Assembly: GCA_023132075.1 (NCBI GenBank)
Contig: JAGLYT010000105.1
Coordinates: forward strand, 1 to 5,895
Origin: JAGLHV01 sp023132075 [NCBI: bacterium]
GTDB lineage: Bacteria > CBDUZB01 > JAGLHV01
DNA: 5,895 nucleotides
Direction of reading: 5' to 3'
Positions 2,605-3,678 of this stretch are shown here, piece after piece (position 1 is the first letter of the stretch; each line of letters starts with the position of its first letter). The notes under the pieces are model-generated. The model was given only the letters and a program-made list of their open reading frames with translations. It searched no databases and was not told where the DNA came from. The translations under genes were made by a program, and so were the position numbers.

Positions 2605-2626
2605 TTTTTTGTATTGAGGTTTTGTG

Positions 2627-3112
2627 ATGATAAAGAATAGTAGGGAAAAAATTAAAGAAGATATAACTGTTAAAGAAATAAAAAAAATTTATGATTTAAT
2701 GGTGAAAAGTAATTTATTAGAAATAGAATTGGATGAAAAAAAATATAAAATAAAGATAAAAAGAAAAAGTGAAAAAAGTAATAAAGAAGAGAGAGTTGTG
2801 GTGAAAGAGAATAATGCTTTGGCGGGGATTGATTTAACTGCTTCTTCTTTGGAACAAAAAAAAATAAAAGAAATGGAAACGATAAAGGCGTCAATACCGG
2901 GTGTTTTTTATGAATCCCCTTCACCTGATTCACCGCCTTTTGTAGAAGTAAATGGTATTGTGGAAAAGGGAGAGACAATATGTATTGTTGAAGCGATGAA
3001 GGTGATGAATGAAATTCAGGCAGAAAAAAAATGTAAGATAATAAAAATTTTGGTAAAAAATGGGAAGTCTGTTCAACAAGGAGAGGATTTGTTTTTTGTT
3101 TCTTATTTGTAA
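2627..3112 (+). CDS. accB: Biotin carboxyl carrier protein of acetyl-CoA carboxylase
   Basis: AccB carries CO2 on a covalently bound biotin between the biotin carboxylase (AccC) and carboxyltransferase (AccAD) parts of acetyl-CoA carboxylase, the first step of fatty acid synthesis. The product has 161 residues, close to the 156 of E. coli. The N-terminal helical region (ITVKEIKKIYDLMVKSNLLEIEL) is typical, followed by a very lysine-rich linker (about 40-65). The biotinyl domain occupies about 82-161. It has the 'thumb' segment SPSPDSPPFVEV, typical of AccB, and the biotinylation motif EAMKVMNE, with Lys125 as acceptor. ATG 2627 is preferred over the adjacent GTG 2624 because GAGGT at 2616-2620 then lies 6 nt away instead of 3. 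The gene follows pnp by 22 nt, so co-transcription is likely. Two oddities: accC does not follow, and the usual PMVG before the thumb reads SIPG. Confidence 0.93.
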   Translation: MIKNSREKIKEDITVKEIKKIYDLMVKSNLLEIELDEKKYKIKIKRKSEKSNKEERVVVKENNALAGIDLTASSLEQKKIKEMETIKASIPGVFYESPSPDSPPFVEVNGIVEKGETICIVEAMKVMNEIQAEKKCKIIKILVKNGKSVQQGEDLFFVSYL

Positions 3113-3148
3113 AATAAAAATGAAATTTGTCGTCGGGATTTTTATTTT
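3111..3148 (+). terminator. Weak AT-only hairpin after accB, possible terminator
   Basis: AAAATAAAAAT at 3111-3121 pairs perfectly with ATTTTTATTTT at 3138-3148, an 11-bp stem made only of A-T pairs, with a 16-nt loop that contains GTCGTCGGG. A T7 run follows at 3153-3159, after a short gap. It sits right at the accB stop codon and would separate the first operon from the next promoter. The lack of G-C pairs in the stem makes it a poor intrinsic terminator, so the call is tentative. Confidence 0.35.
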
Positions 3149-3184
3149 TAAGTTTTTTTAGTTTAAAAAATAAATAAAAAAAAT

Positions 3185-3235
3185 ATTTAAAATTGAATTT
3201 TTTTCTTGACAGAAATATTTTTTGGGGTATATAAT
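3185..3235 (+). promoter_or_regulatory. Perfect-consensus sigma-70 promoter of the lysine-repeat gene, with likely UP element
   Basis: TTGACA at 3206-3211 and TATAAT at 3230-3235 match consensus at all twelve positions, with an 18-nt spacer. Just upstream (about 3185-3204) lies an A-tract/T-tract stretch of the type bound by the RNA polymerase alpha subunit (UP element). Predicted start is near 3241-3243, leaving a leader of about 40 nt. By sequence alone it is the strongest promoter in the window. Confidence 0.85.
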
Positions 3236-3282
3236 TAAAATGTAAGCACTTAATTTTCAAAAAGAAAAGAGGTGGTAAAAGA

Positions 3283-3396
3283 ATGGTGGTTAAGAAAAAG
3301 GCAAAAAAGAAACCCGCAAAGAAGAAAGTGGTAAAGAAAAAAGTAGCGAAGAAAAAAGTAGCAAAGAAGAAAGTAGCAAAAAAGAAAAAAAAGTAA
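3283..3396 (+). CDS. Lysine-repeat histone H1-tail-like small protein
   Basis: This gene encodes 37 residues, 23 of them lysine, with seven Val, five Ala, one Pro, the initial Met and no acidic or aromatic residue. It is built of pentads: KKKA, then KKKPA, KKKVV, KKKVA (three times) and a terminal KKKKK. This is the composition of the C-terminal tail of histone H1 and of the basic tails of bacterial H1-like proteins, but without any globular domain. The likely role is neutralising and compacting DNA, or binding RNA or other polyanions; this is inferred from composition alone. The frame is credible because AGAGGTGG at 3268-3275 lies 7 nt before the ATG, a perfect-consensus promoter precedes it and a strong terminator follows 14 nt after the stop. 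Lysine is encoded by both AAA and AAG and alanine by GCA and GCG, so the reading frame looks selected rather than a simple A/G repeat. An alternative is that it is chance coding in a purine-rich transcript, which I consider unlikely. Confidence 0.8.
   Translation: MVVKKKAKKKPAKKKVVKKKVAKKKVAKKKVAKKKKK
3304..3378 (+). repeat. 15-bp tandem repeat, five units, inside the lysine-repeat gene
   Basis: Five consecutive 15-bp units encode KKKPA, KKKVV, KKKVA, KKKVA and KKKVA at 3304-3318, 3319-3333, 3334-3348, 3349-3363 and 3364-3378. The last three differ from each other only at synonymous third positions (AAA/AAG and GCA/GCG). Fifteen is a multiple of three, so gain or loss of a unit would keep the frame. 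Confidence 0.85.
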
Positions 3397-3410
3397 AAAG
3401 TGTTTAATAT

Positions 3411-3452
3411 TTTAAAAAAAGGGTGGAAGATTGGTTCCACCCTTTTTTTAAA
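3411..3452 (+). terminator. Strong intrinsic terminator after the lysine-repeat gene
   Basis: The stem GGGTGGAA (3421-3428) pairs with TTCCACCC (3435-3442) around the loop GATTGG. An A7 run before (3414-3420) and a T7 run after (3443-3449) extend the pairing, and TTT at 3411-3413 with AAA at 3450-3452 brings it to 18 bp. The T-tract makes it a canonical Rho-independent terminator on the + strand. The A-tract means it could also work in the opposite direction, though no convergent gene is present. Confidence 0.93.
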
Positions 3453-3480: not shown

Positions 3481-3678
3481 ATGGTTGAATTGGCTGGAGA
3501 AGTAGCCGGTAGGATATGGGAATATTTAAATAAGAATGGAGACGTTACTATTTTGAATTTGAAAAGCCATTTAAAAATTTCCAATACTTTAATTTGTATG
3601 GGTATTGGATGGCTTGCCAGGGAAGACAAATTAGTTATACAGAAGAAGGAAAAAGGATATTTGATTTTGTTAAAGTAA
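3481..3678 (+). CDS. Small winged helix-turn-helix protein, DUF2582 type
   Basis: The 65-residue product resembles the short winged-helix family DUF2582 (PF10771 as recalled, not searched). Family-like features are the start LAGEVAGRIWEYLNKNGDVTI, a second helix LKSHLKI, the recognition-helix region ending in GWLAREDKL, and a final strand pair (VIQKKEKGYLILLK) forming the wing. The length equals the whole domain, so nothing else is attached. The molecular role of this family is not established; DNA binding is inferred from the fold. GAGGAG at 3467-3472 lies 8 nt before the ATG. Only 14 nt separate the preceding terminator from this ribosome binding site, so no separate promoter fits there. 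Transcription probably depends on readthrough from the lysine-repeat gene, which would link the two functionally and keep this product at lower level. Its own terminator follows at 3696. Confidence 0.85.
   Translation: MVELAGEVAGRIWEYLNKNGDVTILNLKSHLKISNTLICMGIGWLAREDKLVIQKKEKGYLILLK

What the first reader, a model, noticed from the sequence alone, without database searches (positions are those of the whole stretch)
3283..3396. Free-standing 37-residue KKKVA-repeat protein resembling a histone H1 tail
Seen directly: a complete reading frame with a strong Shine-Dalgarno site, 62% lysine, in pentad repeats, with no globular domain. It is short enough that standard gene finders with length cut-offs would miss it. 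Known bacterial H1-like proteins (such as chlamydial Hc1 or the AlgP-type tails) are longer, usually well above 100 residues. A stand-alone tail of this size, flanked by its own promoter and terminator, suggests a minimal chromatin-condensing or polyanion-binding protein. The function is inference.
Basis: partly seen in the sequence, partly recalled or inferred. Interest (0 to 1): 0.72.

Follow-up and report, generated by a model that had tools for sequence, protein, structure and literature searches.

The report
Stand-alone lysine-rich tail microprotein gene
A tiny gene for a 37-residue, 62% lysine protein looks real and belongs to a scattered group of 12-45-residue lysine microproteins in little-known bacteria, probably acting as a detached histone-H1-like tail that binds DNA, RNA or another polyanion.

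Summary
Window 3283-3396 (+) is a complete 37-aa frame (23 Lys) with a Shine-Dalgarno site, a perfect TTGACA-18-TATAAT promoter and a strong terminator-like hairpin. It is very unlikely to be a chance frame. The same small gene lies between accB-like and DUF2582 in one of two same-genus genomes (22 aa) and in a separate lineage, the MAG titled Elusimicrobiota CSMAG_1382 (21 aa). I found 17 such free-standing genes (12-45 aa) in 14 genomes at five kinds of locus. In one family, the six genomes with a match to the partner gene all carry one just upstream of it, and one has three in tandem, each with its own ribosome site. Substitutions fall mostly on third codon positions. The partner, here called YLYF, is an unnamed one- or two-repeat protein, predicted all-beta, that often carries the same lysine tail fused on. 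Best reading: a translated, detached, H1/Hc2-like polycationic tail acting in trans on nucleic acid or another polyanion. Expression and binding are inferred, not shown. A leader-peptide role is the main rival; the pairing it would need did not pass shuffle controls.

The parts
3206..3235 (+). promoter, TTGACA-18-TATAAT
   Evidence: 12/12 consensus; TTGACA at the corresponding place in G001 (L006) and L011, and upstream of DUF2582 in G069-G072, which lack the micro-ORF here
3269..3275 (+). Shine-Dalgarno site GAGGTGG
   Evidence: read from sequence; a G-rich SD stands before each of the 17 free-standing genes counted
3283..3396 (+). 37-aa lysine-pentad microprotein gene
3414..3449 (+). intrinsic-terminator-like hairpin (A7-GC stem-U7)
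   Evidence: RNA fold z -5.7; G001 z -4.6; L011 hairpin z -5.7 but without a U-tract (sequence)
3481..3678 (+). downstream DUF2582 winged-helix gene (neighbour)
   Evidence: PF10771 E 1.4e-17
2624..3112 (+). upstream accB-like biotinyl-domain gene (neighbour)
   Evidence: PF00364 E 6.3e-17

Best explanation
A real, independently transcribed microprotein gene. Its product is a disordered polycation made of lysine pentads, the stand-alone equivalent of the lysine tail that the same bacteria fuse to a small protein (YLYF). It most likely acts in trans as a histone-H1/Hc2-like tail, neutralising and bridging nucleic acid (DNA first, RNA or polyphosphate possible). Shown by sequence comparison: conservation of frame, composition and SD and, at the DUF2582 locus, of a promoter hexamer and a hairpin; recurrence at other loci; tandem copies. 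Inferred: that it is made, that it is abundant, that it is disordered, and what it binds.
For: (1) Same gene, same place in G001 and L011. (2) 17 free-standing genes in 14 genomes, 12-45 aa, 53-71% Lys, each with a G-rich SD. (3) Codon differences at positions 1/2/3 sum to 0/6/31 over five pairs that share no sequence: G000/G001 0/1/5, G069/G072 0/0/1, G226/G444 0/2/13, G446/G445 0/3/10, G443a/b 0/0/2 (of the 15 pairs computed, first-position changes are 0 in 13 and 1 in 2). (4) G000 and G001 differ by 15 codons, the length of three pentads, in frame. (5) Three tandem copies in G443, each with its own SD. (6) In family f73, the 6 genomes with a YLYF match (of 7 f73 genomes searched) all carry the gene directly upstream of YLYF; the other 7 YLYF genomes of that phylum show neither a long Lys tail nor this gene in the fetched flanks. 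(7) The same kind of tail is fused to YLYF in G000, G001, G002 and others. Near rplK-rplA, G139/G221 has it free and G362, of a sister family, has it fused; all 4 genomes of that sister family that were searched have the fused form and no free gene in the fetched flanks. (8) YLYF is in 9 of 9 genomes searched by handle, 8 of which have a free gene, against 24 of 290 in the wider sample, which includes G000-G002.
Against: No expression or binding data. Low-complexity sequence can arise repeatedly, so common descent of the free genes across lineages is not shown; by protein search the 37-aa query finds only itself in 290 genomes. G002 (same genus, 97% complete) lacks a DUF2582 match and I found no free gene there, though not every Lys-coding place in it was inspected. 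Only 3 of the 24 YLYF genomes have a free gene within the fetched flanks; in f73 the gene was found through YLYF, so that association is partly ascertainment, and the 8 genomes of point 8 are only a few lineages. The free genes of G000, G001, G060 and G069-G072 are not next to YLYF. The contig with G000's YLYF is nearly identical to G002's (97% over 76 aa), so its binning is uncertain. In f73 the upstream HTH frame runs into the micro-ORF in another phase.
Confidence: 0.6

Rival explanations
1. Leader peptide/attenuator: the frame is a run of Lys codons whose translation controls the hairpin and thereby DUF2582 (window) or the next gene elsewhere.
For: Short frame, hairpin 17 nt after the stop codon, no promoter match between hairpin and DUF2582; in G069-G072 a TTGACA promoter stands directly before DUF2582 without the insert; in G069-G072 a conserved palindromic stretch follows the micro-ORF before purH.
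Against: No convincing antiterminator: in all three genomes the best alternative pairing is of the hairpin 3' arm with the SD region, but it is weaker than the hairpin (-14.4/-13.6/-12.1 against -20.0/-23.3/-24.3 kcal/mol), compares with shuffled arms at P 0.04, 0.24 and 0.77 (core-only shuffles 0.16 and 0.54 for the first two), and swapped arms pair about as well or better in most combinations. The next genes differ (DUF2582, purH, a small CxxC-protein gene, YLYF) and none looks like a lysine-metabolism gene; tandem triplication with separate SDs and lengths up to 45 aa fit poorly.
Confidence: 0.15
2. Small basic ribosome- or RNA-associated protein (working like bTHX-type mini ribosomal proteins, recalled) rather than a chromatin protein.
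For: Polycation; in G139 a member lies downstream of rplK and rplA, and in G362 the fused form lies downstream of nusG-like, rplK and rplA genes (names recalled from sequence); in the window it follows rpsO-pnp-accB.
Against: No fixed sequence beyond the pentads, length varies 12-45 aa, tandem copies; no Pfam or PDB-sequence match.
Confidence: 0.15
3. Translation-boosting leader (ribosome reinitiation) for the next gene, as proposed in general by PMC4833913 (abstract and outline read).
For: In f73 the gap from micro-ORF to YLYF is 12-21 nt.
Against: In the window a hairpin and 84 nt separate the stop codon from DUF2582; such a role would not need lysine.
Confidence: 0.05
4. Chance or artefact: an A/G-rich tract that happens to be open.
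For: AT-rich genome (about 30% GC in this stretch); the K3xxK3 DNA pattern is no commoner than its reversed control in 6 of 11 genomes.
Against: Random expectation 0.0-0.4 per Mb; conserved locus, SD, promoter hexamer, hairpin and third-position substitutions; among the fetched loci 13 of 15 distinct frames of 12-60 aa with at least 50% Lys belong to this group.
Confidence: 0.03

Closest known systems
Chlamydial Hc2 (HctB) histone H1-like protein
   Same: Tandem basic pentamers; length varies by repeats without loss of frame (PMC2848022, passages read).
   Different: Hc2 is 165-237 aa; its pentamers have two basic and three mainly Ala residues and it has conserved non-repeat ends (same passages); here three Lys per pentad, 12-45 aa and nothing else in the protein.
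AlgP / PhaF KPAA tails and Bordetella BpH1
   Same: Lys/Ala-rich repeat predicted to be disordered; KPAA-repeat peptides bind DNA in vitro and the AlgP C-terminus is needed for polyphosphate-granule spacing (PMC9239181, passages read).
   Different: There the repeat region is 154 aa and follows a 124-aa predicted helical domain (same passages); BpH1 is 182-206 aa (PMC2848022). Here the tail is a separate gene with one proline.
YLYF proteins of the same bacteria (unnamed family found here)
   Same: Many carry a KKKVA/KKVVKK-type tail.
   Different: They have one or two repeats of about 38 residues, predicted all-beta, in front of the tail.
Attenuator leader peptides (hisL, thrL type; recalled)
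   Same: Short frame rich in one amino acid upstream of a hairpin.
   Different: No supported alternative structure and no biosynthetic operon for that amino acid.

Membership tests
Hc2/HctB family | tandem pentamers with basic residues | tested here: met
   KKKVA/KKKVV pentads
Hc2/HctB family | length 165-237 aa with conserved non-repeat ends | tested here: not met
   37 aa, repeat only; Hc2 figures from passages of PMC2848022
Hc2/HctB family | match to a curated profile | tested here: inconclusive
   0 families in Pfam and NCBIfam, but low complexity and short length weaken this test
AlgP/PhaF-type tail protein | KPAA-type tail on a structured N-terminal domain | tested here: not met
   no N-terminal domain; one Pro only
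H1-like function | binds and condenses DNA | not testable with these tools
   needs purified peptide
Attenuator leader peptide | alternative antiterminator structure | tested here: inconclusive
   pairing with the SD exists but P 0.04/0.24/0.77 against shuffles
Attenuator leader peptide | controls a pathway of the repeated amino acid | tested here: not met
   next genes DUF2582/uppP, purH, YLYF, CxxC-protein gene (purH and CxxC named from sequence, recalled)
Free-standing lysine microprotein group defined here | 12-45 aa, at least 50% Lys, own SD, no other domain | tested here: met

The most novel reading that the evidence does not exclude
A split, modular chromatin-like system in several little-studied bacterial lineages: a small protein with no convincing match to a known fold (YLYF) and a lysine-pentad tail that evolution keeps either fused to it or as a detached 12-45-aa gene, sometimes in tandem copies, so that tail dosage is set separately from the core; the detached tail would be among the smallest H1-like proteins known.
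Probability: 0.25. Interest if true: 0.8.

Novelty: new variant of a known kind. Interest (0 to 1): 0.62.

Why it matters
Lysine-repeat tails are known as parts of larger bacterial proteins. A recurrent, conserved gene that is only the tail, sometimes multiplied beside the tailed protein, gives a natural experiment on what such tails do alone. It also marks a class that gene finders with length cut-offs and tryptic proteomics would probably miss, and that a protein search did not find even in the sister species, where it is present.

Tried and rejected
Protein search with the 37-aa query: only itself in 290 genomes, missing even G001's copy. Rfam, permissive: five matches, all under the gathering scores, set aside: mir-627 on both strands of G001's hairpin (E 0.0018 and 0.19), L20_leader at the hairpin of G001 and of the window (E 0.045 and 0.92), VrrA elsewhere. 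SD-hairpin pairing as an attenuator: not better than shuffles overall. Avoidance of long A-runs by AAA/AAG choice as a sign of translation: the observed longest run is below the random mean in the 16 valid rows, but P is under 0.01 only in G226, G446 and G444 and is 0.07 for the window, so weak; the G060 row of that call used wrong coordinates and is void (coordinates corrected). YLYF structure: AlphaFold2 pLDDT 87.7, pTM 0.70, 22 sequences; Foldseek PDB best E 1.1, best second-look Z 3.8, PDB profile best E 0.038, scattered weak Pfam matches with best E 0.00083: no function from these. YLYF in plasmids and phages: no match at E 1e-5. PNPase tree to decide whether the DUF2582-locus copy is ancestral: 18 of the 22 rows tried went in (four gave no frame or one under 550 aa); G000/G001, G060, G069-G072 and G139 form one group with support 84/85 and no resolved order inside, so gain or loss cannot be told. 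Literature: nine searches (listings seen, three papers opened in part) listed no description of a free-standing lysine-pentad protein of this size, and no paper naming DUF2582; they cover open-licence PMC papers only.

Full report
The finding. The frame 3283-3396 is there as described: 37 aa, 23 lysines (62%), an SD (GAGGTGG) 7 nt before the ATG, a promoter of twelve consensus matches and a hairpin ending in U7. The window is the start of contig C8 of a 1.87 Mb draft genome (86.7% complete, 1.7% contaminated); two other species of its genus are held, and the other relatives listed are related at domain level only. Gene order: rpsO, pnp, accB-like, [micro-ORF], DUF2582, uppP/bacA, ftsK (pnp and ftsK named from sequence).

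Conservation at the locus. In G001 (same genus) the same place holds MVVKKKAKKKVAKKKVVKKKKK, with TTGACA upstream and a hairpin downstream. In L011 (record title: Elusimicrobiota bacterium CSMAG_1382; PNPase 57% identical) the same place holds MAKAKKKKATKKKATKKKKKK with a TTGACA and a strong hairpin that lacks the U-tract. G002 (same genus, 97% complete) has no DUF2582 hit and its best accB match, 31% identical, stands in another operon. In G069-G072 and G139 the order pnp-accB-DUF2582-uppP is kept but the micro-ORF is not there; in G069-G072 a CTTGACA promoter sits directly before DUF2582. So in the window the micro-ORF and hairpin lie between a promoter of that type and DUF2582; whether they were gained or lost is unresolved (tree).

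The group elsewhere. A lysine DNA pattern run on 11 genomes gave 28 new loci, all inspected by script, and I fetched 14 more stretches; many other matched places, above all in G000, G001, G002 and G139, were not inspected, so free genes may have been missed there. Found: in G069-G072 12-17 aa with a G-rich SD, ahead of purH and, in three of the four, behind an HD-GYP-type sensor gene (G071 has only a short frame there) (gene names recalled from sequence); in G139 27 aa between argB and a small CxxC protein (names recalled) and 24 aa between an HTH-like frame (translated by eye) and YLYF, downstream of rplK-rplA. In all I count 17 free-standing genes in 14 genomes: G000, G001, G060, G069, G070, G071, G072, G139 (2), G226, G367, G443 (3), G444, G445, G446. 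A further Lys-coding fragment without a start at a contig edge of G139 is left out. G139 and G221 are probably the same genome under two handles (identical coordinates).

The YLYF partner. A tailed protein in G000 and G002 led to a family with the motif MAEKVxKxGVKRExGYLYFIDKxGDVSRAKMARGG once or twice. It is in 24 of 290 genomes of the wide sample, 9 of 9 searched by handle, 13 of 16 of G367's phylum and 5 of 6 of G221's phylum. Of one search's 24 genomes, 3 have a free lysine gene in the fetched flanks (G226, G367, G221). In G367's phylum the 6 YLYF genomes of family f73 (7 searched) have it directly upstream, with three tandem copies in G443; none of the other 7 YLYF genomes does (four short frames of 11-21 aa with 43-55% Lys and no pentads that the script printed there were set aside). 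In f73 an HTH gene precedes the micro-ORF in the 6 genomes, and a large mfd-like frame precedes that in 5 (G444's contig begins in the HTH gene) (mfd recalled; HTH_17, PF12728, E 7.8e-14, scanned for G226 only). The HTH frame runs on into the micro-ORF in another phase, over about 50-80 nt in five genomes and over all three copies in G443 (coordinates, worked out by hand); in G226 the micro-ORF's third position is the HTH frame's first, so the third-position changes favour the micro-ORF frame. In G221's phylum the 4 genomes of family f185 have the tail fused and no free gene in the fetched flanks. YLYF has no convincing Pfam, PDB-sequence or fold match.

Is it translated? Changes at positions 1/2/3 are 0/6/31 over five pairs sharing no sequence (the two g73 pairs may share history, and codon-sized gaps were imposed by the aligner). 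G000 and G001 differ in length by exactly 15 codons. Each of the 17 genes has a G-rich SD. In 1.24 Mb of fetched, redundant DNA the distinct frames of 12-60 aa with at least 50% Lys are 15: 13 are this group, one is a YLYF tail cut by a masked stretch and one is a 12-aa chance frame; the script's own SD test passed 11 of 15, failing two group members for which it took an upstream GTG as start. Since loci were fetched because of such matches this shows a gap in the distribution, not a frequency. Frames that begin with TTG in that script (G069, G071, G072) and G445's longer frame fell outside it.

Mechanism. Committed reading: a short transcript makes a disordered polycation that binds polyanions, DNA first. 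The anatomy fits: it is nothing but the tail that related bacteria attach to YLYF, repeat number drifts as in Hc2 (PMC2848022, passages), and AlgP shows that such tails bind DNA and organise polyphosphate granules (PMC9239181, passages). The hairpin directly after the gene would give more microprotein mRNA than DUF2582 mRNA (inference). A leader-peptide role is not excluded but lacks support.

Novelty. Lysine-pentad tails are known; a conserved gene that is only the tail, in a recurrent group of 12-45 aa, did not appear in the listings of the searches made. I class it as a new variant of a known kind. The free genes may be convergent; low complexity forbids a homology claim across lineages.

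Noticed in passing
L161:1402-1728 (-), L196:1501-1803, L165:1501-1851 and relatives: YLYF: an unnamed family of about 40-200 aa proteins (one or two repeats of about 38 residues, often with a Lys tail), predicted all-beta (pLDDT 87.7), no convincing Pfam or PDB match.
   Followed up: partly
L119:1545-1590, L120:1540-1590, L141:1165-1215: In G069-G072 a conserved stretch with the 16-bp palindrome ATCAGTGGCCACTGAT follows the lysine micro-ORF and precedes purH: possible RNA switch or operator; no Rfam match in L119, L120 or L141; fold z -0.25, -2.2 and -3.2.
   Followed up: partly
window 2670-3440 (-): A 256-aa open frame on the minus strand, full of Phe (complement of the Lys codons), could be miscalled as a gene.
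   Followed up: no
L004:305-1870: G000 C179 encodes a PorV-like outer-membrane protein with a long KKKVVKKQKINKKK insert before a TPR-like end (names recalled).
   Followed up: no
L157 (G000 C51) and L156 (G002 C173): YLYF/DJ-1-like region nearly identical between G000 and G002 although G002 lacks a DUF2582 match and has a different accB context: possible mis-binning or unusual conservation.
   Followed up: no
L168:1501-1742: The YLYF gene of G221/G139 next to the micro-ORF has an in-frame TGA within its second repeat and runs to the contig end.
   Followed up: no
L145:1310-1460 (-): A small protein with two CxxC pairs directly after the G139 lysine micro-ORF, DUF5679-like from memory.
   Followed up: no
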